A stretch of 23,341 bases of DNA from positions 1-23,341 of IMG/VR virus record IMGVR_UViG_3300020477_000137, one strand, 5' to 3'. The number at the start of each line of letters is the position of its first letter. Positions within the stretch are counted from its first letter, which is position 1. Shown here piece after piece: positions 1,320 to 23,341 of the stretch. This DNA is from a virus. A program made the translations under genes and the position numbers. Under the pieces are notes generated by a model, which worked only from the letters and a program-made list of their open reading frames with translations, had not been told where the DNA came from and did no database searches.

Positions 1320-2200
1320 TTTTTGCTCCTCTGCTCACTGCCCCAGTGAACCTCCAATATCGCTCTGCCCAACACCGCAGGTATTTGTGGGATTACTGAA
1401 TTTCCCAACGCCTTTAGTCTTTGCGTTCTGTTTTTTTGCCCTTCGGCAACTCTTGGCGTTCCTTCTTCCCAATTATCTCCCCAATGTCCGTGAATCCTTT
1501 TGGATACCCCATCACCAGTTCCACCCAGTCCGCGGCCAGTGTTCCATTGCCAGTGTTCCTCACTTTTCGAGGTGTCGGCCACAAAACTGCCCCCCTCAAA
1601 TTTCCCCTCGCTACATCGTGAGGAATTCCTTTTTCGTTCTTTTTCATATGAGGACTTTGTGAGTCCGATGTTTTTGGAGTTGGCCAAGACTGCAATGATG
1701 AAGCAGCGGTATCGGAGATGGGGTGCGTTTTGTGATGAAGCAGGTAGTATGAGCGTTTTTGTTTCGTAACCTTCACTTTCCAGGTCAGTGCAGACCTGCT
1801 CGAATACCACTCCGTCTCGGATGCTAACAAGATTTCGCACATTCTCTCCAAGGACGTAGGTGGGTCTGATTTCCTTGATGATTCTAAACATTTCAGGCCA
1901 GAGCCAGCGATCATCTTCTGTTGCTTTCTGGAGTCCTGCAACGGATACGGATTGACAGGGGAACCCCCCTGTGATGACATCAACTCTATCCAATCCAACT
2001 GTATCCACTCCGACATCTCTTACGTCCTCATAAATTGGCACATCAGGCCAGTGCTTTTTAAGCACCTTCTGGGCAAAGGGTTCGTTGTCACAGAAGCCAA
2101 CTGTTTCAAAACCACCAGTGCTTTCCAAGCCAAGGCTAAAGCCACCGATGCCACTAAATAGATCCAGATGGCGTAGTTTTCTTTGCTCATTTTTTTCCAT
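1316..2200 (-). CDS. C5-cytosine DNA methyltransferase (Dcm-like)
   Basis: A 294-residue enzyme with the ordered motifs of the C5 methyltransferases. Motif I is DLFSGIGGFSLGL (residues 13-25, AdoMet binding). Motif IV is GGFPCQS, containing the catalytic cysteine. Motif VI is GENV, a motif VIII-like block is LRYRCF, and motif X near the C-terminus is RLKALGNSVIPQ. The region between motifs VIII and X, where target recognition lies, is short. It should methylate cytosine in phage DNA, most plausibly to escape restriction. No partner endonuclease of an R-M system is recognised, though VRR-NUC lies two genes upstream. It overlaps the preceding gene by 14 bases. Hand count on line 1921-1980 gives 32/60 G+C, far higher than the PP-loop gene two genes upstream. 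Confidence 0.93.
   Translation of the reverse strand: MEKNEQRKLRHLDLFSGIGGFSLGLESTGGFETVGFCDNEPFAQKVLKKHWPDVPIYEDVRDVGVDTVGLDRVDVITGGFPCQSVSVAGLQKATEDDRWLWPEMFRIIKEIRPTYVLGENVRNLVSIRDGVVFEQVCTDLESEGYETKTLILPASSQNAPHLRYRCFIIAVLANSKNIGLTKSSYEKERKRNSSRCSEGKFEGGSFVADTSKSEEHWQWNTGRGLGGTGDGVSKRIHGHWGDNWEEGTPRVAEGQKNRTQRLKALGNSVIPQIPAVLGRAILEVHWGSEQRSKK
1414..2016 (-). other. 200-codon open frame inside the methyltransferase gene
   Basis: A second reading frame on the same strand stays open for 200 codons within the methyltransferase gene. An internal ATG at 1980 (MSSQGG...) lies over the catalytic GGFPCQ motif of the main frame. The product contains LTWKVKVTK, WPTP twice and ADWVELVMGYPKGFTD near its C-terminus. 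From memory, these are hallmarks of a recurring phage hypothetical protein (LTWK, WPTP, WVEWLMGFPxGWT) usually found at cytosine methyltransferase loci. No convincing ribosome binding site was found. It could be a real overlapping gene or a conserved by-product of constrained methyltransferase sequence. It is therefore not called as a confident gene. Confidence 0.3.
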
Positions 2201-2501
2201 CCAACCCCAGATCCCTTAGTGATAGTTCTTCCCCACCGTTCAGTTCATCCCACACATCATCACGGAGATTTTCAGATCTTTTGTACGGTTCTCTGCGGTT
2301 CCGATCCTTCATAAAATCCTGCCACGACTTTTTCTTTTTAATCTTTGGTTTAGGAGCGACAGTTTTTTTGGAAAGAAGCACTTCCATTGTAAAGTAAATG
2401 TTACTGCACTTGGAACACTGTCGCCTGCGCTTAACGCCCTCTGACAACTTACGCGAATCAAGTACCTTAGTTTGGAATGATTGGCAGCTAGGGCAATGCA
2501 T
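2187..2501 (-). CDS. NrdR-like zinc ribbon protein lacking the ATP cone
   Basis: About 104 residues. The first 40 (MHCPSC near the start, VLDSRK, VKRRRQC, CSKC) resemble the N-terminal zinc ribbon of NrdR, the ribonucleotide-reductase repressor, including the basic RRR that follows the second strand. The NrdR ATP-cone domain is absent. It is replaced by a lysine-rich linker and an acidic tail, so this is probably a phage DNA-binding protein and not NrdR. The start at 2501 forms a TGATG coupling with the upstream gene; an in-frame ATG at 2513 is the alternative. It overlaps the methyltransferase start by 14 bases. Confidence 0.75.
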   Translation of the reverse strand: MHCPSCQSFQTKVLDSRKLSEGVKRRRQCSKCSNIYFTMEVLLSKKTVAPKPKIKKKKSWQDFMKDRNRREPYKRSENLRDDVWDELNGGEELSLRDLGLDGKK

Positions 2502-3319
2502 CAAACACCACACATTCCGTCACATTCGTCCAAAAAGTTTAACTGCCCTCTATCTTCTAATGAAGAAAAATCAACTTCATCTAATGGCTTTAAAGATGAA
2601 TGAACAAACTGTTCTACATTTTTTGTGTTTTGGGTTCTTATTGCTTTATCAAATACTACTGCATCATTAAAACTTTTAGGATCATTAATCATCATATCAC
2701 GCCACAAACTATTGTCGTGGTAAGGACAAGCAATGCAGGCTGACTTAGCTAACTTTTTATTTGGATAATGCTTGTTAAACCATTGAACGCAATGGTGCCT
2801 TTTCATACCTAATTCAAGCAATGGAAATCTATTAATAATATACTTATCTCGACTTTCCTTTACTCTTTGCATCTCATCAGTAGAAATACCAATCCAAGTT
2901 TCACATAGTTTACCTTTAGCTCTCTCACCCTTTTTTAATCCTAGCAATTCTCTAGTTTTATATTTTATAGGCTGTATCTTATAATCATTAGTGCATTGCC
3001 TCATACCAATGCCAGAAGCCGTAAAGAAAGGCATAGTAACAAACTTAGTACCAAATTTATTTTCACCTTTTAATGTATGCTCTTTAATATTGCCTACCGT
3101 TACTCTGTATACTGGAAACGGCAACTGTTTTTCTAGCCAATCAAGATGGTCATACACACTTTCAGGCTCAAATTGTGTATCAGCAAAAATTGCACAATCT
3201 GGCATTGTAGTTATTTTGCCCATACCAGCCATCAATGCCATTACAGATGATTGAACACCTGCTCCTAAACTAATTACCCTTAAATCAGCGTTTGGTATTT
3301 CTTTGCTAAAACTAATCAT
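2501..3319 (-). CDS. PP-loop ATPase, PAPS-reductase-like
   Basis: About 272 residues. SLGAGVQSS near residue 17 is a PP-loop (ATP pyrophosphatase) motif of the PAPS reductase superfamily. It is followed by PDCAIFADTQFEPESVYDHLDWL and by conserved-looking FFTASGIGMRQCT and WIGISTDE blocks. Cysteine pairs at CIACP (about 195-199) and in the C-terminal CDGMCGV could bind zinc or an iron-sulfur cluster, as in some tRNA-thiolation relatives. Phages carry this family widely; its substrate is not established to my knowledge. Sulfate assimilation is unlikely here. The start is ATG 3319, coupled to the nuclease stop, or GTG 3322. Line 2641-2700 counts only 16/60 G+C, well below its neighbours, which suggests separate acquisition. 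Confidence 0.85.
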   Translation of the reverse strand: MISFSKEIPNADLRVISLGAGVQSSVMALMAGMGKITTMPDCAIFADTQFEPESVYDHLDWLEKQLPFPVYRVTVGNIKEHTLKGENKFGTKFVTMPFFTASGIGMRQCTNDYKIQPIKYKTRELLGLKKGERAKGKLCETWIGISTDEMQRVKESRDKYIINRFPLLELGMKRHHCVQWFNKHYPNKKLAKSACIACPYHDNSLWRDMMINDPKSFNDAVVFDKAIRTQNTKNVEQFVHSSLKPLDEVDFSSLEDRGQLNFLDECDGMCGV

Positions 3320-3738
3320 CACGCACCCTGCACTTCTGCCATCTTTTCAATGGCTCTGGATTTTCCGTTTTCTCTAAGTTCGATGATGTGTGATAGCCAA
3401 GCCTTAACTTTGTGCAGGCGGTTAGCAGTCAAGACCATACACCCAGCTTCTCCCAGTTCAGCCTGGACTGCCTTTTGAGCAGGTGTTACCACGCCGCGTT
3501 TCGGTGCTTTTAATTCAATGAATAATGGGTAGGGAATACCACCAAAGAAATATCTGTGCGGAACAAATATGCACAGATCTGGAAACCCTGATTTCATTCC
3601 TAACTTTTTTAAGCGCATCATATAATTAACGTGCCTTCTTCCTTCATTTGGCGAATGGTGAAAAAAACATCCAGACGGCAATGCAGCATCCAACCACTGC
3701 ACCACTAGTTTCTGAAACTCGTCTTCAGTCACGCTCAC
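3319..3738 (-). CDS. VRR-NUC domain nuclease
   Basis: A 139-residue stand-alone VRR-NUC protein of the PD-(D/E)XK nuclease superfamily. Visible elements are NEGRR (residues 31-35), the SGFPDLCIF strand with the catalytic Asp, the IELKAPKRG strand with Glu and Lys, and TPAQKAVQ supplying the Gln of the helix. Short phage VRR-NUC proteins are thought to cleave branched or flap DNA during replication or recombination. The start is a GTG inside the end of cro (14-base overlap), and the stop overlaps the PP-loop gene start. The length is normal for the phage family. Confidence 0.88.
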   Translation of the reverse strand: MSVTEDEFQKLVVQWLDAALPSGCFFHHSPNEGRRHVNYMMRLKKLGMKSGFPDLCIFVPHRYFFGGIPYPLFIELKAPKRGVVTPAQKAVQAELGEAGCMVLTANRLHKVKAWLSHIIELRENGKSRAIEKMAEVQGA

Positions 3739-3971: not shown

Positions 3972-4022
3972 TAGTGTTACTTAAATAAATTAAATATGAC
4001 ACTTACTGACATTGAGGTTATT

Positions 4023-4673
4023 ATGAACGAATACTATAATCCCACTATGAGCGGTGCAAATTTAGCAAGATATATTAAGTTGTCTGGCTTGTCCAAAGGG
4101 GAAGTGGCAGAACAAAAGGGGATTGCTCCAGAAAGTTTGTCCAGGCACATTTCTGGTCGGTCACACTTTAGCGTTCAGGACGCTATTGAGTATGGTAAAA
4201 TTTTAGGCATAACACCAGAACGTCTTTTGTTTGAGCCTAGACCAATAAAGATTGCAGGCACAACCAATATGAACATTGTCAATATGTATGACAATTCAGA
4301 AAAAGAGAGATATGTCCGATTTCATCATTCAATGCGCGATGGTGTAAACTGCCTTACAATGGATGAAACTGCATCAGCTTACCAATATGTGAAGTATCTT
4401 TGGTTTTATATGTCTTCTTATATGGAAAAGACTGTGGTTCATCAGCATTGTTTTGGTGAGCCTTGCATTGTTAAAACTAAAGATGACAGAATATTATGCA
4501 GAAGACCTTTTCCAGAGCCTATTACTAGTGACTTCAAATTAAAATTTACATTGCAAGGATTGCCAATCTACGGTTCTTTAGAAATAGAACAAGGCGTATC
4601 ACTTAAATGGGCGTGTCCACTGCTAAATAATATCCAACGTCCTGATCTTATAGGCATTGAAATTGACGATTAA
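4023..4673 (+). CDS. CI-like phage repressor (XRE helix-turn-helix)
   Basis: A 216-residue protein. Residues 12-65 form an XRE-type helix-turn-helix (LARYIKLSGLSKGEVAEQKGI, then SLSRHISGRSHFS and LGITPERLLF). The C-terminal half is a beta-rich domain (GEPCIVKTKDDRILCRR..., GSLEIEQG) in the place where LexA/CI proteins carry the S24 dimerisation/peptidase fold. No clear catalytic Ser-Lys pair is visible, so self-cleavage is uncertain. The start at 4023 has GAGG five bases upstream. An in-frame ATG at 3996 lacks a site but could be used on a leaderless message. Its location between two matching operators makes a lysogeny repressor the best reading. Confidence 0.8.
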   Translation: MNEYYNPTMSGANLARYIKLSGLSKGEVAEQKGIAPESLSRHISGRSHFSVQDAIEYGKILGITPERLLFEPRPIKIAGTTNMNIVNMYDNSEKERYVRFHHSMRDGVNCLTMDETASAYQYVKYLWFYMSSYMEKTVVHQHCFGEPCIVKTKDDRILCRRPFPEPITSDFKLKFTLQGLPIYGSLEIEQGVSLKWACPLLNNIQRPDLIGIEIDD

Positions 4674-7660: not shown

Positions 7661-8809
7661 TTAACCCCCATAAATAGCAGACGCTGCTGCATTGCGTGTC
7701 TTGTCCTGACGATGCTTATTCTTACTATAATGACCGTACTGACGATAAGTAAAGTTTGGGTTACTGTGGCCTAATAATTCAGCAACAGATCCCCAATCCT
7801 CGCCTAGTGCCGCTAATTGCACTGATGCATAGAAATGTCTGAAGTACCCCCACGATAAATCAATGTCGGCAACTTTACACACGCGATCAATTAATTTACC
7901 AAAGTTATGTTTCTTTTGCGGAGTACCTACTCTTGATGGGAAAACAAGATGCTCATCGTCAGAAAATCTTGTCTTTACTTTCCACAGTTTTAACGCAGTT
8001 AATGTGGCATCATCGATGGGAATAACACGGTTACCTCTTTTCGTTTTCGTATCGCCAATCTTTAATCCGCCGTGCTTGACCGCCTGACGTACATAAATCT
8101 CACCTTCCTCAAAATCTACGTCTTGCCAACTCAATGCCCTCAATTCACCTTGGCGCAGACCACTAGCAAGTGATAGTAGGATTGCAACCTGGTCACGCTG
8201 ACTTTCACCTTTAATGCCCACAGATACTAATTTCTGTATTGTTTCAGGCTGAATAAACGGTGCCTTGTCGCTGACGGAAGTAGACAAACCAAAGCTGACC
8301 TTATCTAATGGATTGATCGGTATCCATCCCTTGGCGACACAAAAGTTAAAAAACTGCTTTAAAACCTTAATGCGTTTTTCGCTAGTTGCCTTTGATTTGC
8401 CTTCAGCTTTAATCCACCTGACAAAAGCTGCAGATATTTCCGCCTTATTTTCAACTTTGATAATGTTTAGTTTATGCTTGTTAAATGGAAACCCATCTAT
8501 TTTAGTCGCAAGACAATATTTAAGACCTCTTTTTTTGTCACTCAAATTTGATTCACTAATCAGTCCATCATTTAAGCGCGTTTCTTCTTGTGCTAAAAAA
8601 TTTTCAGATGCCTTTAATACAGTAAAAATTTCCTGCGGTTTGGAAATCAATCCTAAGTTAAATTGACTAACTAGTTTTTCAGCTTCTGTAACTGCTAATG
8701 CTTTTGTTTTAAAGGTGCCTACCTTGTTACCTAAACCAATGGCTCTACCGTCAATAATCCAATACTGACGGTATTTTTCATTTAACTTTCTTACTTTTAA
8801 TTGTTTCAT
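7661..8809 (-). CDS. int: Tyrosine-recombinase integrase
   Basis: A 382-residue phage integrase. The N-terminal 50 residues form a small arm-type DNA-binding region (WIIDGRAIGLGNKVGTFKTKALA). The core-binding domain spans about 65-165 and the catalytic domain follows. Active-site residues are Arg219 (SGLRQGELRAL), Lys257 (TKTKRG), Arg324 (GYFRHFYA), His348 (LLGHSN) and the nucleophile Tyr358 (YRQYGHY). The usual His of HxxR is Gly321 here, a tolerated but noteworthy change. Start: ATG just after the upstream stop with GGGAG ahead. It catalyses insertion at and excision from a tRNA-Glu gene through the attP about 490 bases upstream. Confidence 0.95.
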   Translation of the reverse strand: MKQLKVRKLNEKYRQYWIIDGRAIGLGNKVGTFKTKALAVTEAEKLVSQFNLGLISKPQEIFTVLKASENFLAQEETRLNDGLISESNLSDKKRGLKYCLATKIDGFPFNKHKLNIIKVENKAEISAAFVRWIKAEGKSKATSEKRIKVLKQFFNFCVAKGWIPINPLDKVSFGLSTSVSDKAPFIQPETIQKLVSVGIKGESQRDQVAILLSLASGLRQGELRALSWQDVDFEEGEIYVRQAVKHGGLKIGDTKTKRGNRVIPIDDATLTALKLWKVKTRFSDDEHLVFPSRVGTPQKKHNFGKLIDRVCKVADIDLSWGYFRHFYASVQLAALGEDWGSVAELLGHSNPNFTYRQYGHYSKNKHRQDKTRNAAASAIYGG

Positions 8810-9492: not shown

Positions 9493-9933
9493 TTAGACGT
9501 TTTTCATTCTTTCAATTAATCTCATAGCACGATTTTTGGTTTGTGTATACCATCTGCTTTGTTCCATCTGGACGGATGCTTCAAAATGGTCGCCATCTTT
9601 TACTGCTTGTATCTTCTTTTTAAACTTTGAATAACGCGGATAACCTAATTGAAAACACATATTTGCGCATATTAATTTTACTTCCTCGTGCATATTATCC
9701 CACTCAGGATAAATCTTTTTACAGTCGCTTATGGTTACCTGGATATCTTTTTCAAATAACTCATCGCATCTTTCTTGAGTGATAGCGGTACCAACGTCAG
9801 ATTTAAATTCTTCATCTTCAGGCAAAACTAGATGCCCAATTCCACAAGTAGCAAATCCTAAATGATCTTTATACACTTCCAACACTTGACCTTCATCATC
9901 AGCTATTTCTTTTTGCAGTCTTTTTATGTCCAT
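9493..9933 (-). CDS. T4-type lysozyme (GH24 endolysin)
   Basis: A 146-residue muramidase. With the start at 9933, Glu14 (DDEG), Asp23 (YKDHLG) and Thr29 (TCGIGH) reproduce the spacing of the T4 lysozyme E11-D20-T26 triad, and GIGH follows as in the family. The C-terminal helix has the WYTQTKNRAMRL element. The start is chosen because AGGAG lies eight bases upstream of this ATG but only two from the one at 9939. No signal anchor is visible, so release depends on the adjacent holin. Its start overlaps the holin gene by 35 bases. It should cut the glycan backbone of peptidoglycan at lysis. Confidence 0.93.
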   Translation of the reverse strand: MDIKRLQKEIADDEGQVLEVYKDHLGFATCGIGHLVLPEDEEFKSDVGTAITQERCDELFEKDIQVTISDCKKIYPEWDNMHEEVKLICANMCFQLGYPRYSKFKKKIQAVKDGDHFEASVQMEQSRWYTQTKNRAMRLIERMKNV

Positions 9934-10345
9934 TACCATTACTCCTTTGATTCATTATTTGTAATCCTTGTTTGCCGAACCGATAGCCAAATGATGCGCC
10001 TATTGAAATATATAAACAATTTGAAAACCAAGGTGGGCAGTGTTCATTTAAAAATATAAATCCTTCTTTTACATATTCTTGTGTAAACGGAAAAAATGAC
10101 CCCAGTAGGATTGCCCCAAAGATCAGAGTCCAAAATTCATCTTTCCAACTTCCTGCCATTTGTGCCGTTAATGCCTGTTCATTAAGCATCTCTGACGTTG
10201 CAGAAGTTTCAAAAACTTTCGCCTCTGCTCTTGCTCTTGCAACCTTTACCTCTGTTTCTGCTTTAGCTTTATCGACCTTACCCTGCAGCCAAGTTCCAGC
10301 TAGATTGGATACTGGCGCAATTAATTTTCCTAACATTCCAAGCAT
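9899..10345 (-). CDS. Holin of the 3-TM, gene-transfer-release type
   Basis: A 148-residue protein. The N-terminus (GKLIAPVSNLAGTWLQGKVDKAKAETEVKVARARAEAKV) is the amphipathic, Ala/Lys-rich stretch typical of GTA-type 3TM holins (PF11351-like by eye). Then come SWKDEFWTLIFGAILLGSFFPF (one membrane segment, about 67-88), and LYISIGASFGYRFG (second, about 113-126), with a basic Asn-rich tail. It should permeabilise the inner membrane to release the lysozyme encoded next. Start coupled to the upstream mini-ORF through TAATG. Confidence 0.82.
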   Translation of the reverse strand: MLGMLGKLIAPVSNLAGTWLQGKVDKAKAETEVKVARARAEAKVFETSATSEMLNEQALTAQMAGSWKDEFWTLIFGAILLGSFFPFTQEYVKEGFIFLNEHCPPWFSNCLYISIGASFGYRFGKQGLQIMNQRSNGNGHKKTAKRNS

Positions 10346-12044: not shown

Positions 12045-12434
12045 TTACTCCTTCCAAGTAACAGTTTTGAAAATTTTTGGTAATTTGTCTGACTTGGGAT
12101 TAATAATGTAATCTCTTAACGATGCTCTATAAGTATCCCAATCGCTGACATTAGACAGTTTTGCACGGACATCAGCCAGTCCTACCCAATCACTCTCTTC
12201 AAGTCGCCTTTTTGCTTCTTGGACATTGATGCTTTTTTTTATTTCGCTTGGGAGAGTTGGCGCTTTTAAAGCAGTATATTTTTTGCCATCCCAAGTGCCG
12301 CCTTCTTCAATAGTAACATTATCTGGGATTTCACCTATTGTCTGACCAGTGGGCGGTTTCCAGTCACTTTTAGGATCATATTGAATCTTATTAAGAATAA
12401 TTTTTTTTGAATCAAGTAATACATATTGTGTCAT
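12045..12434 (-). CDS. Tail fibre assembly chaperone-like protein
   Basis: A 129-residue protein starting at an ATGA overlap with the tail fibre stop. The N-terminal half is a small beta-rich domain (GGTWDGKKYTALKAP). The C-terminal part (EAKRRLEESDWVGLADV... WDTYRASLRDYI) matches the phage tail assembly chaperone pattern (PF16778-like: 'R..L..sDWtqL.D.....W..YR.aLRdi'). Location directly after the fibre gene is standard for such chaperones, which assist trimerisation or attachment of the fibre tip. Confidence 0.8.
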   Translation of the reverse strand: MTQYVLLDSKKIILNKIQYDPKSDWKPPTGQTIGEIPDNVTIEEGGTWDGKKYTALKAPTLPSEIKKSINVQEAKRRLEESDWVGLADVRAKLSNVSDWDTYRASLRDYIINPKSDKLPKIFKTVTWKE

Positions 12435-15400
12435 TGTGCAAACCTCACTGTCCATATCCAAACTTTTCCTGCGCCACCACTGCCGCCTGCTCCAGAGTTG
12501 GCATCACCAGACTGCTGTGCGCCGCCACCTCCTCCGCCACCAGCAGGTGCGCCACCATTTCCGCCATTACCGCCTGCTACGCCAGACGAACCCCCAACAC
12601 CTGAACCTCCGCCGTCACCGCCAAAGGTATGATCAGCACCGTTGGAGCCGTTACCACCGTCAGAACTGCCGCCATCGCCACCGCCACCGCTGATTAATTC
12701 ATACAACCATCTATTGTCCTCATCCCAAAAATAGTTGGTTCCTGACCAAATAGTATAATTACTATCGTAAGTACCTCGCCAGCCTATACCACGCATATTA
12801 TTAGCAGAGGACATAGAATAAGTGGGAACACTCGCTAACGAGCCAATTCCATTAAAAAACGCCGCACCTTTGCCGCCAGGGTTTCCCCTATAAGATGAAT
12901 TATAAGTCGCAGTTCCACCGCCACCGCCGCCGCCAGCTATGCCAGGCATACCTGATCTGGCATACTCATCATCATCACCTATTCCACCTGCCCCTGGTGT
13001 TGCGTCATTGATCCACGGAGAATAAGAAGAGGTATTATATGAAGCAAAATACCCACGATGCATTACTGAGCCACCATTTGCGAATGAATCACCACCACCA
13101 CCACCAGATTTGCCACCAATACCTCTGCAAATTACTGAAGAGTCATTGGTAACTGTACTAGAACCTCCTGCCGTACCGTTTGAACCCCAAGTATCAATAC
13201 CTTTAGCTGCGCCACCACTACCGCCTGACCCAACTACAACAGACATTGTTCCTTCAAGTGCCGCAGAAATAAACATTTGTAAATCTACACCACCTCCTGC
13301 GCCACCGCCGCCGCCTGCTTCACCAGAGCCACGACCGCCAGAACCGCCGCCGCCACCACCGCCTACGCAATAAATGTAGGTCATTATAGCACCCTCAGGC
13401 TTTGTCCAAGTGCCATTCGATGTAAAGACTTGCTCATCGACAGCCACCGAGGCAGATGTTGCACCAGTAAGCGCACCGTTGATGTCCAGAGGATTACTAA
13501 TTGCAACTTTACCAGTACCATTTGCCGTAAAGGTAAAATCCGCATTAGAAGCAGTATTGGTAAAAACCATATTGCCAGTATCTTGTGTAAGAGATATATT
13601 TCCAGTAGATGCATCAAGAGATATATTTCCAGAAGATGCATTAATATCAACTGCGCCTGGTGCCGTTAAATCTATTTCGCCAGAAGAGCCATCTAAGGTA
13701 ATGTAGGCTGAAACTCCACCACTCCCATTGTCAGTACGAAAAACGATGTCTTTGTCATCGGTTTGATTTTGAATTACTAAATCACCTGCTCCTCGATTAG
13801 TTAGGAATGAATTATTTGTACTAGAATAGTGGGCTAAAATAAGATCATTACTATCTCCTACACCAAGTTCGCCATTGTCATTAACTCTAAAAGAGTCAGC
13901 AGATTTATCCCACATTGCATTCACATTAGCACCAGTGAATGTAACGTCACCATCACTATCTTGTACCAACACAGTTCCTGTTGCATCTGGTAAAGTTATG
14001 GTTCTGGCGGCTGTTGGGTCTGCTACAGTTAAAGTTGTCTCGTTATCATCTGCTGTAGAACCTTCAAATTGAATACTATAAGATTGCATATTCAAGGTAT
14101 TATGCAAAAACACTTGCCCCCAAGCCATAGAAAGGTATTCATCTGAAGTACCATGTCTCATAGCTTCAAAATGTAATTGCCCATCTTCTGTGCCATCACT
14201 TGCGTCTTTGAGTTCTGTCCAGATTTTTCCGTATTCTACATCTTCTGAATTATCATTTCTTCCTCTAAATAAAATTTCACCCAAATCATCAGCATCAGCA
14301 GGGCTAGAAGAATTTCTATACAGAACTAGAGATGGGTCATCTCCATCACCAGCATCTGTGGAAGTTATGGTTAAATCTCCAGTTACGTCTATTCCAGTAG
14401 ATTTAGTACTAATTTTTTCATTTCCATAATGATATAACTTAGTCTCACCAGTTGAGCTAATTGCTTGAAAATAAAGTGCGCTCCCACTAGACCCATCATC
14501 ACCATATATGCTGACTGATTCATCATCTGCATTTTGAAAAATATTGAAAGAACCAATAGAATTACTCAAATAAGTATTATTATCTGTATGATGATATATC
14601 TGTAAAGCAGTAGTTCCACTTCCATTTTTCCACTTTAACTGTGTTGTATCGTGTAGTACTAATTCATCTGCACTCTCATCCCATTGAAGATATGAACCAG
14701 AAGTAGCACCAAAGAATTTAACGTCAATGCCAGTATCGTCTACACCAAAATTTACAGCAGCACCTGAAATAAGAAGTGTATCTGTTCCATCCTCATCGTA
14801 TTCAAGTGAAACATCCTTTCCTGTACCAAAGTATAATTTCTTATCATCTGCAAGGGTTACATCTCCACCAGAAATAAGAAGTGTATCTATCCCATCCTCA
14901 TCATACTCAAGTGATACGTCTTGACCTGAACCGAAATAAATTTTCTTATCATCCGCAATATAAATATCACCCCATTCGGCTGAAGTGCTACCTAAATCTG
15001 CTCCTCCAACGGCGGATGGTAATATAGAATCTTCTGCTGTAAATGTATTTGTTCTAATTCCAGAAGTACCGTTGTCTATTGCGCCAAACCCACTTGTAAT
15101 GCTACCAGCGTCTAAATCACCGACACTTGTAATATTTGTTTGTGCTGCAGTTTGTAATGTTCCAGTTAGACTGCCAGAAAAACCAGTGGCAGTAACTAAC
15201 CCAGTTGAAGGATTATAAATAAACGTACCAGTGTCATCTAATAGAGCATCACTTTCATTATTGAAAACTACTGGAAAATTTGTATTAGCTGTACTGTCTG
15301 TTACCGTAACCTTAGAAGATGTACCAGTAACATCACCTTCCAAGTTTGCTACTAAAGTACCTACAGCATAGCCAGTTCCGCTCGTGTTAACTGTGGTGTC

Positions 15401-16792
15401 TGGCGCAGCTTGAAGGTCTTTAAATAGTTTCCACTTGCCGCTATCGTTAGCATCACGAAATAATCCTGCATAAAGATCCTGCGAACCAGAAGTATCATAC
15501 AATCCGTAAAAACCAATGTCCAAACTATCACTTGAATTGTTAGCCTTGGCTAAGATTATAAGAGGGTCTTCTACTGAAAGAGTAGCCGTATTAACTGTTG
15601 TGGTGTCGCCATTTACCGTCAAATCTCCAGTAACAGTCAGATCTCCTCCAGCCGTAACATCGGCACCACTAAAGGTCAGGGCAGTAGTCGTGCCTGACTT
15701 AATGATTAAATTCCCTGACGAATTAGTTGCACTGCCAAAGGTTGCTGCACCGTCCTGAAAGAATATGTCGCCGCCATCTGCATTTAAATTGATGTCCGTG
15801 GTCGCATCCAGGGTAATGGACGAACCAGAATCTATTTCTGCTATGATTGGAGTTGTAAGAGTTTTATTTGTCAGTGTGTCTGTTGTCGCTCTACCAACTA
15901 ATGTATCTGAATCAGTCGGTAATGTTAATGTGCCAGAATTACTAATCGATGAAATCACTGGTGTGGTCAGTGTTTTATTTGTCAATGTATCAGTCGTTGC
16001 CCTGCCAACTAATGTGTCCGAACTAGTCGGTAATGTCAGCGTACCTGAATTGCTTATTTGTGCAATTACTGGAGTTGTTAAAGTTTTATTTGTTAAAGTT
16101 TCAGTATTACTTGTTAAAGAAACAGTACCAGTGGCATTTGGCAAAGTTATTGTTTTGTCAGAACCAGTTGGATCAGTGACCGTTAAAGTAGTTTCGTAAG
16201 CATCCGCAGTCGCACCCTCAAAAACAATGGACGTACCAACTAATAAATTCGTCAACGATGAAGTGACTTGTAAATTACCACTAGAGTCAAATGCCAGCAT
16301 TTTGTTTGCGCGGTCACTTGATGATTCTTTTATTTCAGAATTGGTAATGGCATTAGTAAAATTAACTTTTAAGGAACGGCTTACCTGATCTTGCAAATCC
16401 TGCGCTATATAGGTTAATCGGTCAATCGCGGTTTCGTGAGTTTCAGCACCAAAAGTGTCGTTTTCAATGTAATTAGTTCCCTGGTTAATGCTCAGATTTC
16501 TGGACAAGACAACTGTTTCACCAGATTGGGGTCTGTAGTCTGATGTTGAATAATGGGCATCACTAGAGGTGCCAGTATTGTATTTAAACAAGACATTGCC
16601 ACCAGTTGCTACATTGACATTAGTTACAATGAAATGGGTATTTAATGTCTTAACTGTTTCAGTTCCGTCTGCTGCTCTAATCGTTACTTTAATATCAGCA
16701 GCTTGATAAATTAGAAACGTATAAGCAAACGAATGTTGGGAACCATCGCCGCTATAACTGTCTTTTTCTAGACTGGTGCTTGTAACTGTCAT
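12431..16792 (-). CDS. Tail fibre with T7-type N-terminus and glycine-rich tip
   Basis: A 1453-residue fibre. Residues 1-145 (SYSGDGSQHSFAYTF... AAD... ETHETAIDRLTYIAQDLQDQVSRSL) match the T7 gp17 tail-attachment domain. The shaft holds repeats: a 37-residue TLTNKTLTTPVI... unit (232-313), two FEG.TAD..ETTLTV.DPT..TITLP modules, DLTVTGDLTVNG, and a duplicated LADDKKxYFG block. After FTSNGTWTKPEG the last 330 residues are a glycine-rich domain with GGGGGGG runs, like polyglycine receptor-binding tips. It determines host binding. Translationally coupled to the upstream gene (TAATG). The mosaic of modules suggests frequent recombination. Confidence 0.93.
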   Translation of the reverse strand: MTVTSTSLEKDSYSGDGSQHSFAYTFLIYQAADIKVTIRAADGTETVKTLNTHFIVTNVNVATGGNVLFKYNTGTSSDAHYSTSDYRPQSGETVVLSRNLSINQGTNYIENDTFGAETHETAIDRLTYIAQDLQDQVSRSLKVNFTNAITNSEIKESSSDRANKMLAFDSSGNLQVTSSLTNLLVGTSIVFEGATADAYETTLTVTDPTGSDKTITLPNATGTVSLTSNTETLTNKTLTTPVIAQISNSGTLTLPTSSDTLVGRATTDTLTNKTLTTPVISSISNSGTLTLPTDSDTLVGRATTDTLTNKTLTTPIIAEIDSGSSITLDATTDINLNADGGDIFFQDGAATFGSATNSSGNLIIKSGTTTALTFSGADVTAGGDLTVTGDLTVNGDTTTVNTATLSVEDPLIILAKANNSSDSLDIGFYGLYDTSGSQDLYAGLFRDANDSGKWKLFKDLQAAPDTTVNTSGTGYAVGTLVANLEGDVTGTSSKVTVTDSTANTNFPVVFNNESDALLDDTGTFIYNPSTGLVTATGFSGSLTGTLQTAAQTNITSVGDLDAGSITSGFGAIDNGTSGIRTNTFTAEDSILPSAVGGADLGSTSAEWGDIYIADDKKIYFGSGQDVSLEYDEDGIDTLLISGGDVTLADDKKLYFGTGKDVSLEYDEDGTDTLLISGAAVNFGVDDTGIDVKFFGATSGSYLQWDESADELVLHDTTQLKWKNGSGTTALQIYHHTDNNTYLSNSIGSFNIFQNADDESVSIYGDDGSSGSALYFQAISSTGETKLYHYGNEKISTKSTGIDVTGDLTITSTDAGDGDDPSLVLYRNSSSPADADDLGEILFRGRNDNSEDVEYGKIWTELKDASDGTEDGQLHFEAMRHGTSDEYLSMAWGQVFLHNTLNMQSYSIQFEGSTADDNETTLTVADPTAARTITLPDATGTVLVQDSDGDVTFTGANVNAMWDKSADSFRVNDNGELGVGDSNDLILAHYSSTNNSFLTNRGAGDLVIQNQTDDKDIVFRTDNGSGGVSAYITLDGSSGEIDLTAPGAVDINASSGNISLDASTGNISLTQDTGNMVFTNTASNADFTFTANGTGKVAISNPLDINGALTGATSASVAVDEQVFTSNGTWTKPEGAIMTYIYCVGGGGGGGSGGRGSGEAGGGGGAGGGVDLQMFISAALEGTMSVVVGSGGSGGAAKGIDTWGSNGTAGGSSTVTNDSSVICRGIGGKSGGGGGDSFANGGSVMHRGYFASYNTSSYSPWINDATPGAGGIGDDDEYARSGMPGIAGGGGGGGTATYNSSYRGNPGGKGAAFFNGIGSLASVPTYSMSSANNMRGIGWRGTYDSNYTIWSGTNYFWDEDNRWLYELISGGGGDGGSSDGGNGSNGADHTFGGDGGGSGVGGSSGVAGGNGGNGGAPAGGGGGGGAQQSGDANSGAGGSGGAGKVWIWTVRFAQ
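15854..16099 (-). repeat. 111-bp tandem repeats within the fibre gene
   Basis: Two full 37-codon units and the start of a third (TLTNKTLTTPxI...SNSGTLTLPTxSDTLVGRATTD). The protein copies are nearly identical while the DNA has diverged at third positions, so the protein repeat is maintained by selection or is old. The unit number may vary among relatives and would set shaft length. Confidence 0.7.
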
Positions 16793-19700
16793 TAAAATAC
16801 TCCTACTTCTTTAAGTCTTTGTCTGGCTGAATAAGCTGATAAAATGTCACTGTGTTCATCCATACGCATTAATTGTAAAAACGCCGCTTCATAAAACTTT
16901 CTTTCTGCCGTTCTAATCATTCCAATTTGATCTGACCTTGGTGCCGTTTTAAATGCGATTGAACTCATAAGAAGTTCCAAATGTTTACGAAAAGTTAAGG
17001 ATTCCATTCCCTGCGCTACTGGAATTTCAATTTCATTTTTTGCCAGCTCGTTTAAATCACCACGAAAAGCCTTGGGCAAGGCAATGCCTTCCATTGATTT
17101 TTTTTCAATCGATAGCGGAACACCTAAACGAATGATCGTTTTATGCCATTCAGGCACCGCTTCGCTTCGTGACATTTTAAAAGGTGTTAATGAGTTCCAT
17201 AATGCTTTTACTGGATTGACTGAATACGGTACGCTTGTTTCAACTTTGTAGCCCAAAACATCGTAGCGGTACTGATAATCATCTTTACGCTCCTCAAACC
17301 ACGGATTGGTTTTGTTTTGCATCAGCCAGATATCTTCAAAATTTTCTTTCCAGAATTGCGCAGACGTACCTGCGCTATCTTTTACCGTTCCGACAATTTC
17401 ATAAGGCACATACTCTAAAGGGTTGTTTGTCTTCTTACTGTCATCAAACATTTTTCTGGCATCTTCAATGGTATAGTATTCCAATGGTTGACTTGGGGTT
17501 TTAATGGTTGGATCCATCAATTTATCGACATTGCGCACAATGGCGGAATATGGCATTGGTGCCACGCCGTAAATGTTACTCATCGGCGACTTTAAAATAA
17601 TGTCAGCATTGTCAAACTTAAACGCAGTAATTATTTCAGACATCCCCTGCAAAAAAGGAACATTTTTAAAATAATCGGTTGTGGCAAAAAGACTTGCGCT
17701 GAAAAAGCCCATACGTTCAGTCGGATCGTCAAATCGGCGCATCTTTTCGGCGGTATCTGCTGCAATTCCAAAAAACGCAGACACTGGCTCTAACCCTGAG
17801 TAATTAATGTATAGCAGTTCGCCATTAGGAACACCATTTCTATCGTACAACGGTAATGGTTCGCCGTTGCTGTCTACTGGAAAGTTTTCACCACGAAATA
17901 CAAAACTGTAAGGCTGCCATCCTTTTGGAAGCTGGTTTCTTAAATTCTGATCTTGTGGCAGCGCACCAGTTAGCCTTCCAGTTTGCGCCAACAGAAACAC
18001 TGCTGACATTGTACCAGAGCCAAACGCAATTCGCGCTCTGGCTCTCTGTGCAGCTTGAGCGCCATTTTGACCCATAATGTCTGCTCTAGTCTGTTTTGAA
18101 GCAAGCGCTGCCAACGGATGCCCCTGCATTACCATACGAATGGCATTGGTTGGTGCTTTGGCAAATGGAAGTATAATCCTGCCAAAAAAGTTTTGCTGCA
18201 TCGCCCTGGTTATTTTAGCAATGCCGCCATCTCCAAGATCTTCCGTTAAAGTTGCATAAGTTGAAGCTGCATCCATTTTGTCTTGAACCGACCTTGGATC
18301 CAGTAACACCATTGTGCCGTTATCAATCGCCGTTTGCTCATCTAGACCATTCATTAAACCAATTCGTGTCTTTCGGTAGGCTTCTTCATACAATACGCCC
18401 CTACTCGCTATCACACGCCAAAAATCATCGGCTGCCATTAAGGCACGACCAGGATATCTGATCATCTTGCCAAACCAATCAACCGCCTGACCCATTGTGC
18501 CAGAGATGCGCAAGTTTTCTGAATCAATGGCTTTGAATTGCTGCGCTTCAACTTTGTTCAAGGCATCGGCAGGGTCTTCGTCACGAAAAGTTTTATACGC
18601 AGTAACAAAGGCATCATAGTAAGACTGATTCATTCCGTACCACCTTGCCCAGATATCGCCATAAAATATGCCTTCTGGGTCACGCTTGCCTACCAGACCT
18701 TTCATCGTACCAACGGTTGCCGCCGTAGCATCAACGAACTGGTTGTAGACCATAAAAAGAGGGGTGGCGAAAAAGTTCTTAAAATGGGTCTTGGGATATG
18801 CCAGCAATCCGTTAATGTAGATTTCGTGAAAAACACCCTTGAATTTTGAATCCCACCCATCATAAACATACTTGTTGGCATTAGACTGCCCACCTTCGTT
18901 CAATGCTTTTATGTACCCTACCGCAAGTTTTTTTGCGTGTGCAGTTCCGCCACTTTCATTTAATAGGATTTCCGCTGCTTGTGCTGCTGAAACGTCATCT
19001 CTTGCACCAACTGGTATTTTAAAAGCATTTAATGCTCTGGCAATTTCTGTTTGAGCCCCTTTGGCTTTCATTTGCAAGCCTGAATGAATTGCCATTAAAC
19101 GGCGGAACTTTAAAAGATTAGCGGTACTGTCTTCCCCTTTTTCAATCAACCGTGCAAGTTCCGTGAGTTTCTTTCCAGAATTTTGCAGGACAATTCGTAA
19201 CGCCGTCATTTCTTCAGCGTTTAAAGTTGTCCCCTTTTTCATTTTCAGAACACGCTTGGTAAATCCGATTTCATCTGCCAGTAACTGTTCTGCCTGGTCA
19301 TACGTTTCGTTTAATGGAATTTTACCACGCTTGGCAACATCAGTTGGTTTTTTTATTATTTCAGAAACTGCATTAATGGTCGCCAGTACATCCTCACCAG
19401 ATTCCATTTTATCAAAATTAAAATCAATGCCTTCATCGGTAGAAACTAAAATATTATCCTTTTTAGTCATCTCCAAAACGTCTAAGGCATCACCTTCATT
19501 TGCCAGACCAGTTTTTTTAGTAGCCGCAGACGTAATTGTTTCGTCTGAAGTTTTTGCAATGGTTGATAAAGCGTCACCCAAGCCTTCGTCTGAAGGCAGT
19601 GTTGTGGCAATGTTTGCATCACGACCCCCTGCTTGAAAACGCTCCAGACCTTTTTTTGATAAAACACTTTCTTCTAACTTTTTTTGTCTGCCAGTGTAGG

Positions 19701-19932
19701 TTGTTCCAGGTTCCATTAACCGTTCTGTCGTGGGTATGGGAACGGCACCTTTGATAAGATCACCACCTGCATCTGTGACAACTTCCTTAGATCCGCCTTT
19801 TATTATCCCCTTTCCAATTTCTCCTAGCCAACTTGCCAGTTGAATAAACTCTGGTGAATGCGGATCTTTGTCAGCAGGTTTTAACACACCTCCGCTTTGC
19901 AGTGCATTCCTTGCCTGATTATCTGGTATCAT
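16792..19932 (-). CDS. Large internal virion / DNA-ejection protein
   Basis: A 1046-residue protein whose ATG has AAAGG about six bases upstream. The N-terminal 300 residues are helical and charged. The middle contains INGLLAYPKTHFKNFFATPLFMVYNQF, a segment I recognise from the giant virion proteins of marine podoviruses, plus long helical stretches and a hydrophobic patch (TMSAVFLLAQTGRLTG). No enzymatic motif is visible. Size, helical content and location between another huge protein and the tail fibre parallel T7 gp15/gp16, which are ejected and form the trans-envelope channel. Assignment is by position and resemblance. Confidence 0.72.
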   Translation of the reverse strand: MIPDNQARNALQSGGVLKPADKDPHSPEFIQLASWLGEIGKGIIKGGSKEVVTDAGGDLIKGAVPIPTTERLMEPGTTYTGRQKKLEESVLSKKGLERFQAGGRDANIATTLPSDEGLGDALSTIAKTSDETITSAATKKTGLANEGDALDVLEMTKKDNILVSTDEGIDFNFDKMESGEDVLATINAVSEIIKKPTDVAKRGKIPLNETYDQAEQLLADEIGFTKRVLKMKKGTTLNAEEMTALRIVLQNSGKKLTELARLIEKGEDSTANLLKFRRLMAIHSGLQMKAKGAQTEIARALNAFKIPVGARDDVSAAQAAEILLNESGGTAHAKKLAVGYIKALNEGGQSNANKYVYDGWDSKFKGVFHEIYINGLLAYPKTHFKNFFATPLFMVYNQFVDATAATVGTMKGLVGKRDPEGIFYGDIWARWYGMNQSYYDAFVTAYKTFRDEDPADALNKVEAQQFKAIDSENLRISGTMGQAVDWFGKMIRYPGRALMAADDFWRVIASRGVLYEEAYRKTRIGLMNGLDEQTAIDNGTMVLLDPRSVQDKMDAASTYATLTEDLGDGGIAKITRAMQQNFFGRIILPFAKAPTNAIRMVMQGHPLAALASKQTRADIMGQNGAQAAQRARARIAFGSGTMSAVFLLAQTGRLTGALPQDQNLRNQLPKGWQPYSFVFRGENFPVDSNGEPLPLYDRNGVPNGELLYINYSGLEPVSAFFGIAADTAEKMRRFDDPTERMGFFSASLFATTDYFKNVPFLQGMSEIITAFKFDNADIILKSPMSNIYGVAPMPYSAIVRNVDKLMDPTIKTPSQPLEYYTIEDARKMFDDSKKTNNPLEYVPYEIVGTVKDSAGTSAQFWKENFEDIWLMQNKTNPWFEERKDDYQYRYDVLGYKVETSVPYSVNPVKALWNSLTPFKMSRSEAVPEWHKTIIRLGVPLSIEKKSMEGIALPKAFRGDLNELAKNEIEIPVAQGMESLTFRKHLELLMSSIAFKTAPRSDQIGMIRTAERKFYEAAFLQLMRMDEHSDILSAYSARQRLKEVGVF

Positions 19933-19963: not shown

Positions 19964-22606
19964 TTATGCCACTATAGTGGAAGCATCAAGACCAATTTCT
20001 GCGCCAGTATCTAACAAGTTTAAACCATCAAAAGACGCTAATGGTATTGCACCTTGCATAAACTTTTTAAATACTTCTTCTTTAGATTGACCAGTTAATT
20101 GTGATGTAACGTCTACGCGATCATCAATTAAATCTACGATTGTTTTAGGTTCAGATCCTAACCCAGTTAAATCGCCAAAAGTAAACCAAGTTAATGATTG
20201 TGCTTCGGCTGGATTAACGCCTGCAATTTCCGCAACCTTTTTATAAATATCGGCAAAAACGGCATACTCAGTTTGCATCGATTTGCCATTAATCATTTGT
20301 TTTGCAAGTGTATCTTTTATCATTGTAGCAACGTCTAAACTACTTGGATCTTTTTTATACATTTCTTGAAATTCTTTTGTTTTCTTAGGCTTTTTACCAC
20401 CTATAAAATCTATAGGCACTGAACCTGGATTAAGTTTATTCATTACATAAAATACGGCTCTGATTGCGTGAGTGTCTACAGTTACAACCTTTAAATTACC
20501 AGATACGTTTTCTGCAAATGATACTGGCTTGGGATTGGTATTTACATTTAGTTTTCCAGCTTGTTTATCCTCAATTAATTTTTTATGTATGCCACCTTCA
20601 TTAATCATCATAGGGTAGCCTTTTTCATTTATACCATCCCCACCTGATCCTAAAATTTCAGTTACATCTTTACCTAAAGTTTCTTTGGCAGATACAAGTG
20701 ATGCGCTTCTTAAATTTTCTTCTGTTCTAGTGCGAGGACTAGTAACTGCATAATTTTGTGCAAACTTAAATAATTGTTTTTTAGCTACTTTCTCTGGTAT
20801 TCCTAGTGCTACGGCTTTGTCTATTAGTGGAGCCGTATGATAAAAGTATTGTACGTTAGAACCGATCGCTGGTTTTATAGAATTTGCTATTTCTTGTGCA
20901 ATAGCATCTGTATTATCTAGCACGGCTCTGGCTCTATCTCTTATTGGCAACGTAGCAACTTCGCCATTATTTCTAGGTAACACAATTTCTTTTTGTTTAT
21001 GGCTAACTAGAGTTTTTTCATACGATTTTGGACTTGTATCAAATAATGGATTTTGTCCAGATGGTTGTACTCTGTCTTTAGGACTTAATTCCATTTGTTT
21101 GGCTCTAGCATCTAATACAGTTTTAGTATCATCTAATACTTGTTTGGCGTTTGGCAAAACAACATCACCCACCACATCGTCACCTAATTTTAAAGAAGTA
21201 TCAGTAATTTTTTCTATTTCAATTCTAGGTTTAAATAATTGTATTTCTACTGCATCTTCTACATCATCAACATTTATATCTTTATAAAATGCCTCTATTC
21301 TATCATTTTCTAATTGTTGAAATTGAATACCATCATAACCATCAGCTAATGCTTTTTGTGGATCTCTATTATAAGTTTGCTCCCAAAGAGTACGACCTTC
21401 ATTGTTTTTTAAATTTAATATTTTAAATGAACCCTTTAATTTATAAATCTCACCTTCAGGGTCTTTGCCTAACTCACCTCTTGTAAAAGCTGATGCTAGT
21501 TTTTTATTATTAGTTGCATTTATAGCAGGTATTGCTCCAAATTGTGTTCTTCTTGATTTATTGATATCAAGATAATCTAAACCTTTTTTTGTAGTGCCGT
21601 GAAACAAACTAGGATATTCCAATACCATATCAGAACCTTTATTAACTTGTTTTGGTAAAATTACCATAGTAGAATCCACAACATTATCTACCACATCGTC
21701 ACCTGACTTCAAAGCACCTTTAACAATAGGCTTAAGGAAGTTTGCTTCTGCATCTTGAGTACTCATTGCTACACTGCCAGCGGTTGCACCAGCTACTGGC
21801 TTCCACGGTACATATTTTGCGCCTAGCATTATTGCTTTTATAACACCTTCAGTAGCACCGCCTAAAATTCCGCCTTCAATCGCGGACTTGGCACGGTTAA
21901 TTATTTCAGGGTTATTTTCATTTTTCTCCAAAATCGAAACAACGGTGTTACCAATGTTCGTTCGTTCCGCTGGTGTCGCACCATCCCACATTTTTGTTAG
22001 CGAAACTGTCAGCGTTGGATCATTAGGGTTAAAAGCCGCATAGTCAGCTATTGCTCCCCAATACAATCCACGAACAAACGCATTTGCACTGGTTAAGGCT
22101 TTTACCATTGTAGCTGCAGGAACCGCTGCAACGCTAAATTGTGCTACACCTTCCGTGATACCGCCAAGCATTTCATTGTCATATTGCAGATTTTCTACCC
22201 AGGTATTTGCCGTTTTAACACCAGGGATGTTGTCATTGACAAAATTATTATAAGCATCCAATACATATTTTATGCTATCCGAACCACCAATGGGCATATC
22301 AGAACTAATGTACTGACCAACGCCTGGAACCTTTGACATAACCCAATTTAACGTATCAACTGGCGCACCTACAAGTTCAGCAGCACCATACAGTGTTTCT
22401 TCAGCACCTTTGGGTACGCCTTTCACAATGGCTTTACCTACATCAGATCCTACAGAACTCACATTGCTCAATGTTTTATCAATGAATGACTGACCTTGCG
22501 TATCTGCTTCGCCGCTATCACTCGTCACCGTTGGCTCTTCCACTGGTTTTGATCTAAGTAGGGAACCTATAATGTATAGGTTGTCTTGTTCTGTTTCATA
22601 ATCCAT
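19964..22606 (-). CDS. Large polyvalent virion protein with ADP-ribosyltransferase-like segment
   Basis: An 880-residue protein. Residues 1-290 resemble conserved phage internal-virion sequence (GAEETLYGAAELVGAPVDT, FVRGLYWGAIADYAAFNPNDP). Residues 330-465 look like a mono-ADP-ribosyltransferase fold: LFHGTT (His336), a mid region with ASAF, GYDGIQF (423-429), then VEIQLFKPRIEI with Glu454. About residues 600-720 form another domain (FAQNYAVTSPRTRTEENLRSASL, PKPVSFAEN, VTVDTHAIRA), a 'DxHA' pattern seen in phage domains of unknown function (DUF7178-like, tentative). G+C drops near 21770, where the added part begins. If packaged, these enzymes would enter the host with DNA. The domain calls are inference. 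Confidence 0.7.
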   Translation of the reverse strand: MDYETEQDNLYIIGSLLRSKPVEEPTVTSDSGEADTQGQSFIDKTLSNVSSVGSDVGKAIVKGVPKGAEETLYGAAELVGAPVDTLNWVMSKVPGVGQYISSDMPIGGSDSIKYVLDAYNNFVNDNIPGVKTANTWVENLQYDNEMLGGITEGVAQFSVAAVPAATMVKALTSANAFVRGLYWGAIADYAAFNPNDPTLTVSLTKMWDGATPAERTNIGNTVVSILEKNENNPEIINRAKSAIEGGILGGATEGVIKAIMLGAKYVPWKPVAGATAGSVAMSTQDAEANFLKPIVKGALKSGDDVVDNVVDSTMVILPKQVNKGSDMVLEYPSLFHGTTKKGLDYLDINKSRRTQFGAIPAINATNNKKLASAFTRGELGKDPEGEIYKLKGSFKILNLKNNEGRTLWEQTYNRDPQKALADGYDGIQFQQLENDRIEAFYKDINVDDVEDAVEIQLFKPRIEIEKITDTSLKLGDDVVGDVVLPNAKQVLDDTKTVLDARAKQMELSPKDRVQPSGQNPLFDTSPKSYEKTLVSHKQKEIVLPRNNGEVATLPIRDRARAVLDNTDAIAQEIANSIKPAIGSNVQYFYHTAPLIDKAVALGIPEKVAKKQLFKFAQNYAVTSPRTRTEENLRSASLVSAKETLGKDVTEILGSGGDGINEKGYPMMINEGGIHKKLIEDKQAGKLNVNTNPKPVSFAENVSGNLKVVTVDTHAIRAVFYVMNKLNPGSVPIDFIGGKKPKKTKEFQEMYKKDPSSLDVATMIKDTLAKQMINGKSMQTEYAVFADIYKKVAEIAGVNPAEAQSLTWFTFGDLTGLGSEPKTIVDLIDDRVDVTSQLTGQSKEEVFKKFMQGAIPLASFDGLNLLDTGAEIGLDASTIVA

Positions 22607-23341
22607 TATTTCATATCTTCCGCAAAATATGTGATATACGGTTTAAATTCGATATATCTCTGATACAGAAAAGCATCAGCTTTAAAATCTCCTGAAGTTC
22701 TTTCTGTAAAAAAATCGGAAACACTTTTAATAGGGTTTGATTCATCAAGTTCAAAATCAAATTTTCCAAAAAAACCATCGCCCTTCATTACTTTTAAAAA
22801 CGTATTAAACTGATCTCTAACTAACTCTTTCAATGGTTCTTTGTTTGCTTTAATAAGTTCCTTTGCTTTTTCCTGCACCTCACTATAGGTCGCCATTTTA
22901 CCATCTTTTTCGCGCCACTCGGTTAAACTAATATACGTTGCAAAATACATTTCTTTTGCTAAATCTGATAAATTCGAATTGTCGTCTTTGTACTGTTCGT
23001 ATTTAAAAGCACTGCTTATTTTTACTTTTGCTTGTTTGTTTGCGTCATCCATTTCTTTAAGAGCAAGTGCGGCATACTTTTTAAAATCTTCAAGTGTAAT
23101 TTGAGATTCAGGTATGGCATTTACTGCATCAAGCGTTAAATTATTCGTTGCATCTAACTGAATCAAAGTACTAATAACAGTGCGGTCACTTTTTTTGTCT
23201 TTGTCTTTTTCTTCTGGTTCTTCAAACCTTTTCATATATTGGTCGTGTTTCTTCCACATTGTGTCAGTCATCTGCTTTTTATTTATTAGCCTAGCAACGA
23301 TGGCTTGAATTTTTGTATTTTGATTTGGTATTCTTGGATCA
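22606..23341 (-). CDS. Hypothetical virion-associated protein, probably 5'-truncated by window
   Basis: The minus-strand frame is open from the right edge to its stop, which overlaps the next start (TAATG). An ATG at 23271 would give 221 residues, but it lacks a ribosome binding site and the codons upstream (…IPNQNTKIQAIVARLINKKQ) read like normal protein, so the gene probably starts outside. The protein is highly charged and helical (KRFEEPEEKDKDKKSD; LKEMDDANKQAKVKI). It may be a scaffold or small internal virion protein by position. No family is recognised. Confidence 0.65.
   Translation of the reverse strand, partial: DPRIPNQNTKIQAIVARLINKKQMTDTMWKKHDQYMKRFEEPEEKDKDKKSDRTVISTLIQLDATNNLTLDAVNAIPESQITLEDFKKYAALALKEMDDANKQAKVKISSAFKYEQYKDDNSNLSDLAKEMYFATYISLTEWREKDGKMATYSEVQEKAKELIKANKEPLKELVRDQFNTFLKVMKGDGFFGKFDFELDESNPIKSVSDFFTERTSGDFKADAFLYQRYIEFKPYITYFAEDMK

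What the first reader, a model, noticed from the sequence alone, without database searches (positions are those of the whole stretch)
19964..21770. Possible ADP-ribosyltransferase and second unknown domain carried on a virion protein
Between the conserved N-terminal 290 residues and the C-terminus lie an ART-like segment (His336 in LFHGTT, GYDGIQF, Glu454 in VEIQLF) and a domain with the VTVDTHAIRA signature. A large protein encoded among internal-virion genes would be delivered at infection, so these could modify host targets immediately, as T4 Alt does. The domain combination is, to my knowledge, undescribed.
Basis: inference. Interest (0 to 1): 0.7.

Follow-up and report, generated by a model that had tools for sequence, protein, structure and literature searches.

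The report
ART-fold module in phage ejection protein
A marine virus of bacteria carries, in a protein that is probably shot into the host with its DNA, a swappable domain built like ADP-ribosylating enzymes next to a widespread phage domain of unknown function; this fits the known idea of multi-domain injected phage proteins, but in a T7-like ejection gene where relatives carry other modules instead.

Summary
The 880-aa ORF (19964-22606, minus strand) lies in a T7-like internal-virion cluster (head protein, tail tube A and B, gp14-like, ~560 aa, this gene, gp16-like, tail fibre). Its N-terminus resembles 'internal virion protein D'.

Residues ~328-470 are a divergent ADP-ribosyltransferase (ART) fold. 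Pfam's ART-PolyVal is hit below cut-off (17.7 bits, cut-off 31.2; E 0.006). My own profile of viral PolyVal domains scores it above all 5000 shuffles. An AlphaFold model (pLDDT 71) matches only ART folds with confidence (RES toxin, diphtheria toxin catalytic domain; probability ~1), though homologues in its alignment may have steered it. H336 and D425 are kept; the strand-2 aromatic, Y/F/W in 57 of 61 relatives, is Asn363. Activity is therefore uncertain.

The 'VTVDTHAIRA' domain is Pfam DUF7178, here an all-helical ~385-residue unit (485-869), 50-65% identical across marine phages. It is the constant part. The module before it varies: methyltransferase, ASCH, unknown domains, nothing, or other ART-like domains.

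ART plus DUF7178 is not unique: L366 and L389 carry both. Best reading: a polyvalent-type injected effector with an exchangeable slot.

The parts
19964..22606 (-). whole 880-aa ORF: internal-virion-type N-terminus + ART-fold module + DUF7178-like domain
   Evidence: same ORF in near-identical contig L002
21737..22606 (-). N-terminal region, residues 1-290; residues ~37-259 align with the N-part of 'internal virion protein D' of roseophages and pelagiphages
   Evidence: CRP-118 gp34 28.6%, E 6e-14; CRP-804 gp34 39%, E 2e-15
21197..21625 (-). ART-fold module, residues ~328-470
21599..21601 (-). H336 codon, strand-1 His of FHGT
21518..21520 (-). N363 codon, at the position that is Y/F/W in 57 of 61 viral PolyVal ARTs
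21332..21334 (-). D425 codon in GYDG, Asp in 59 of 61 relatives
21245..21247 (-). E454 codon, start of predicted strand 453-457; Glu in 11 of 26 aligned relatives
20000..21154 (-). DUF7178-like constant domain, residues 485-869, all-helical model (pLDDT 85.8)
   Evidence: no PDB fold match; viral matches
20456..20485 (-). VTVDTHAIRA signature, residues 708-717 (D711, T712, H713, R716 invariant in 37 sequences)
16792..19932 (-). next gene, 1046 aa, gp16 / internal virion protein D-like (phrog_6651); aligns with the C-part of the protein whose N-part resembles the 880-aa N-terminus
22606..23340 (-). 3' part of upstream gene (559 aa in L002), in the place of a gp15-like internal virion gene; cut by the window end
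12431..16792 (-). 1453-aa tail fibre/tail protein that closes the structural cluster

Best explanation
The protein is a virion-packaged, injected multi-domain effector of the polyvalent type. An internal-virion N-terminus gets it into the particle and the ejection path. A constant DUF7178-like domain sits at the C-terminus. Between them is a slot filled here by a divergent ART-fold domain, most likely an NAD+-using enzyme that modifies a host macromolecule at the start of infection. Shown by computation: the ORF, its gene neighbourhood, homology to internal virion protein D and DUF7178, the constant/variable layout in relatives, and an ART-like sequence and predicted fold. Inferred: packaging, injection, NAD+ use, and a host target.
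For: Gene order head protein / tail tube A / B / gp14-like IVP / ~560 aa / this gene / gp16-like IVP / tail fibre. N-terminus aligns with IVP-D. ART: Pfam ART-PolyVal E 0.0064; beats 5000 shuffles; shares columns A371, D425, G426 and F458 that were not part of the DNA pattern used to collect the relatives; model strands at 334-338, 362-365, 386-391, 426-430, 453-457, 463-467; the first 27 Foldseek PDB hits are all RES or diphtheria-type ART folds, the two best at E about 1e-3 with probability 1.00. Slot: of 68 distinct relatives some carry methyltransferase, ASCH, cell-wall hydrolase or unknown modules, others none. Recurrence: ART-type domain plus this constant domain in L366 (next to a portal gene) and L389. 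The polyvalent-protein concept with ART as its commonest protein-modifying domain: PMC5512222.
Against: Pfam score below its curated cut-off (17.7 vs 31.2). The usual strand-2 aromatic is Asn363, so the enzyme may be inactive or altered. The fold model used PolyVal homologues in its alignment and has only moderate confidence. No proteomics. The ART module was found only in this virus and a near-identical contig, so selection on it cannot be measured.
Confidence: 0.68

Rival explanations
1. The ART-fold module is no longer catalytic. It kept the fold but lost the aromatic active-site residue and now serves as a binding or structural module of an ejection protein.
For: N363 where 57 of 61 relatives have Y/F/W; weak profile scores.
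Against: H336 and D425 kept, aromatic F374 kept at the next conserved position, Glu available at 454. The relatives' active sites also vary: E454's column is T, Q, D or others in over half.
Confidence: 0.35
2. It is an NAD+-degrading enzyme (RES-like NADase) rather than a transferase, depleting host NAD+ or acting on NAD-based defence signals.
For: Best Foldseek PDB hits are RES toxins (9r35, 6gw6; E 1e-3 to 4e-3, probability 1.00).
Against: Diphtheria-toxin catalytic domain scores equally (1dtp, 1.1e-3). The sequence relation is to PolyVal ARTs, which are predicted to modify proteins (PMC5512222). A fold match cannot tell hydrolysis from transfer.
Confidence: 0.15
3. The HGT...YDG segment is a chance resemblance in an ordinary structural protein.
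For: Below Pfam cut-off; no close homologue outside one near-identical contig.
Against: Beats all 5000 shuffles, shares independently conserved columns, an ART fold is predicted, and ART-type domains recur beside the same constant domain.
Confidence: 0.08
4. The constant VTVDTHAIRA domain is a distant HhH-GPD DNA glycosylase-like enzyme, and the protein acts on DNA.
For: VDTHxxR equals the EndoIII-type catalytic motif; invariant K693 lies 18 residues before invariant D711, the same spacing as K to D in EndoIII-type enzymes.
Against: Profile score (-1.1 bits or less) is below the best scores of shuffles; hhalign gives probability 1%; no HhH-GPD fold match in PDB (hOGG1 rank 47, E 2.8).
Confidence: 0.1

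Closest known systems
ART-PolyVal (Pfam PF18760), Tox-ART-HYD2 clade of polyvalent proteins (PMC5512222)
   Same: HGT strand-1 motif, T/A of the second motif, GYDG, F of the last strand; carried in a large virion-region protein
   Different: below the Pfam cut-off; Asn363 in place of the strand-2 aromatic; sits in a T7-like internal-virion gene rather than an N4-type vRNAP or giant polyvalent protein
DUF7178 (Pfam PF23802) / phrog_3842
   Same: C-terminal domain scores above the cut-off (42.1 vs 27 bits)
   Different: longer conserved unit (~385 residues) in this marine group; no function known
Internal virion protein D (T7 gp16-like) of Autographiviridae such as CRP-118, CRP-804, HTVC041P
   Same: N-terminal ~200 residues and gene position
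   Different: there one ~1200-aa protein; here N- and C-parts lie in two genes, with ART-fold and DUF7178 modules ending the first
T4 Alt
   Same: works like: a proposed ART delivered with the DNA
   Different: Alt is R-S-E clade, a separate family; no sequence relation found here
L366 and L389 viral contigs (IMG/VR)
   Same: ART-type domain and the DUF7178-like domain in one protein among head/portal genes
   Different: different ART subtypes; in L389 the ART follows the constant domain; no internal-virion-D neighbour found

Membership tests
ART superfamily (H-type) | split beta-sheet ART fold | tested here: met
   AF2 model strands and confident Foldseek hits only to ART folds; caveat: homologues in the alignment, pLDDT 70.8
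ART superfamily (H-type) | His in strand 1 | tested here: met
   H336 aligned with the invariant His
ART superfamily (H-type) | Tyr/aromatic in strand 2 | tested here: not met
   N363; Y/F/W in 57 of 61 relatives
ART superfamily (H-type) | catalytic acid (Asp/Glu) in a late strand | tested here: inconclusive
   D425 kept as in 59 of 61; E454 present but its column varies and its alignment is not unique
ART superfamily (H-type) | NAD+-dependent activity | not testable with these tools
   needs biochemistry
ART-PolyVal PF18760 | score above curated cut-off 31.2 bits | tested here: not met
   17.7 bits, E 0.0064; so a relative, not filed as a member
DUF7178 PF23802 | score above curated cut-off 27 bits | tested here: met
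   42.1 bits
Polyvalent proteins | several unrelated domains in one polypeptide near head/packaging genes | tested here: met
   IVP-type N-terminus, ART-fold, DUF7178; gene order
Polyvalent proteins | injected with the DNA | not testable with these tools
   needs virion proteomics and ejection assays
T7 gp16-like internal virion protein D | sequence homology and synteny | tested here: met
   N-terminus and neighbour gene align with IVP-D
T4 Alt / R-S-E clade ART | R-S-E active site | tested here: not met
   His-type motif instead; no Alt-family hit in Pfam or PHROGs
HhH-GPD DNA glycosylase (for VTVDTHAIRA) | profile or fold similarity | tested here: not met
   only motif and K-D spacing agree

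The most novel reading that the evidence does not exclude
The DUF7178-like domain plus the internal-virion N-terminus is a general delivery chassis: marine podophages swap enzymatic modules (ART, methyltransferase, ASCH, others) in and out of one slot of an ejection protein, so that this gene is a natural collection of injected host-takeover domains.
Probability: 0.35. Interest if true: 0.7.

Novelty: new variant of a known kind. Interest (0 to 1): 0.48.

Why it matters
Polyvalent proteins are known mainly from giant head proteins, N4-type polymerases and conjugative elements. Here the same strategy appears inside the T7-like ejection machinery of marine phages, with one constant domain and an exchangeable slot that can be compared across many related viruses. 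That makes two questions testable: what DUF7178 does, and whether ejection proteins carry host-modifying enzymes in common marine phages.

Tried and rejected
Close relatives of the ART segment in phages, plasmids and viral contigs: none but the near-identical L002. ART-PolyVal search of 49 viral and phage records holding the constant domain or IVP-D: none; a later motif-based collection found L366 and L389. An L142-based scan of viral contigs found nothing. PDB sequence search of both domains: nothing useful. HhH-GPD reading of VTVDTHAIRA: tested by profile, hhalign and fold, not supported beyond motif and spacing. Constant domain in bacterial genomes: one MAG contig only, so essentially phage. 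Selection on the ART module: not measurable, a single base differs in the only close relative. The first regex script and the first HhH-GPD extraction script had errors and were rerun.

Full report
What is there. The finding lies in an intact 880-aa ORF on the minus strand, 19964-22606. A near-identical IMG/VR contig, L002, holds the same gene with one base different in 2643 and extends the map beyond the window: major head protein, tail tube A, tail tube B, a gp14-like internal virion protein (phrog_418), a 559-aa gene, the 880-aa gene and the 1046-aa gene. In the window the 1046-aa gene matches phrog_6651 internal virion protein, and a 1453-aa tail protein follows. This is the T7-like order.

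N-terminus. Residues 37-259 align with the N-part of 'internal virion protein D' of roseophages and pelagiphages (28.6% with CRP-118 gp34, E 6e-14; 39% with CRP-804 gp34, E 2e-15). The C-part of those proteins aligns with the neighbouring 1046-aa gene. So the ~1200-aa protein of Autographiviridae appears here as two genes, the first one extended by extra modules. Whether this arose by insertion or by another route was not tested.

ART-like segment. Pfam's ART-PolyVal is hit at E 0.0064, 17.7 bits, against a curated cut-off of 31.2. I collected viral proteins by a YHGT...F..FD DNA pattern, built a profile from 61 of them, and the segment scored 18.8 bits against at most 15.2 in 5000 shuffles. 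In a 27-sequence alignment the window shares D425, G426 and F458, invariant in the other 26, and A371 (24 of 26). DG and F were among the features used to pick compact domains for that alignment; in the larger set of 61, chosen with a DG requirement only, A371 is kept in 51. HGT and FD were fixed by the DNA pattern and count for nothing. The active site is not standard: N363 stands where 57 of 61 relatives have Y, F or W, and the column of E454 is Glu in only 11 of 26. The profile can also place the last strand at residues 435-441, so E454 is a likely but not certain equivalent of the catalytic Glu.

Fold of the ART-like segment. AlphaFold2 on residues 311-490 with that alignment gave pLDDT 70.8, pTM 0.67 and strands at 334-338, 362-365, 386-391, 426-430, 453-457 and 463-467. 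Foldseek against the PDB returned, as its first 27 hits, only RES toxins and diphtheria-type catalytic domains, the best two at E about 1e-3 with probability 1.00; of the rest only another insecticidal-toxin catalytic domain reaches probability 0.47.

The second domain. VTVDTHAIRA belongs to Pfam DUF7178 (42.1 bits, cut-off 27). The conserved unit is 485-869: 36 relatives are 49-65% identical to it, with invariant TSP (622-624), NEKGYPMMI (660-668), K693, D711-T712-H713, R716 and PAEAQ (799-803). Its model is confident (pLDDT 85.8, pTM 0.85) and all-helical, without a PDB match. Viral predicted structures do match, among them UniProt entries named 'ART-PolyVal-like', 'large polyvalent protein associated', a SleB hydrolase and an N-acetyltransferase protein, the named ART entries at E 0.002 to 0.15. 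Those names presumably come from other parts of the same proteins, so this domain already keeps company with polyvalent-type domains.

A slot. The 60 related loci share the C-terminal domain but, L002 apart, not the ART segment. Upstream of it they carry a methyltransferase domain (L053, and by eye L060, L061, L127), an ASCH domain (L003), a cell-wall hydrolase at the N-terminus (L042), several domains without a name, or nothing. In 46 of 73 distinct loci the next gene is the gp16-like protein (my count from the table; the script's own tally of 25 wrongly dropped E-values printed as 0). In the CRP-212 type the gene lies between portal and coat genes.

Recurrence of the combination. Among 106 distinct proteins with the constant domain, L389 (ART-PolyVal E 1.7e-6, 29.3 bits) and L366 (E 1e-3, 20.3 bits) also carry an ART-type domain; both are themselves below the Pfam cut-off of 31.2. 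L328, L349 and L307 have an 'HG..GTGEGxxAYG.GFY' segment in the same slot that resembles another ART subtype by eye but had no Pfam hit where tested. L366 is next to a portal gene. The claim that the combination is undescribed is therefore weakened, though no paper in the held library mentions DUF7178.

How it most likely works. Following the polyvalent-protein model (PMC5512222) and T7 ejection biology (established knowledge), the protein would be packaged, leave the particle with the DNA, and the ART-fold module would act on NAD+ and a host macromolecule early in infection. Packaging, ejection, catalysis and target are inferred. T4 Alt is an analogue only: it is of the R-S-E clade.

Rivals. 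A catalytically dead fold is the strongest rival because of N363. An NADase is possible because RES toxins are the best fold hits. A DNA-glycosylase reading of VTVDTHAIRA rests on a motif and on the K693-D711 spacing of 18, which equals that of EndoIII-type enzymes, but profile and fold tests do not support it.

Noticed in passing
window 16792-19932 and 21737-22606: A single ~1200-aa internal virion protein D of Autographiviridae corresponds to two genes here and probably in many marine relatives, with effector-like modules ending the first.
   Followed up: partly
window 7661-8809 and 3996-4673: Phage integrase (Pfam E 1.7e-22) and a divergent repressor-like ORF on the plus strand (by eye): the virus is probably temperate.
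   Followed up: partly
window 1316-2200: By eye a cytosine-C5 DNA methyltransferase (GGFPCQSVSVAG).
   Followed up: no
window 2501-3322: By eye a PAPS-reductase-like protein (SLGAGVQSSVMALMA) in an early-type cluster.
   Followed up: no
L040, L042, L047, L049, L064 upstream of the constant domain: A recurrent unnamed domain (AYKLFRV...RPGWHAGD..HIG...VWAEVE; phrog_30118/phrog_12224 in L042) fills the same slot.
   Followed up: partly
L055, L124, L126, L132: Another unnamed slot module (NPDGFTISLNNF...VAPSKSLEIKI) shared by several contigs.
   Followed up: no
L328, L349, L307: HG[GT]PH.F...DK.GTGEG.xAYG.GFY segment in the slot, resembling a second phage ART-like subtype; no Pfam hit in L328 and L349.
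   Followed up: partly
window 9493-9939: Phage lysozyme (Pfam E 3.6e-8) near small membrane-protein-like ORFs.
   Followed up: no
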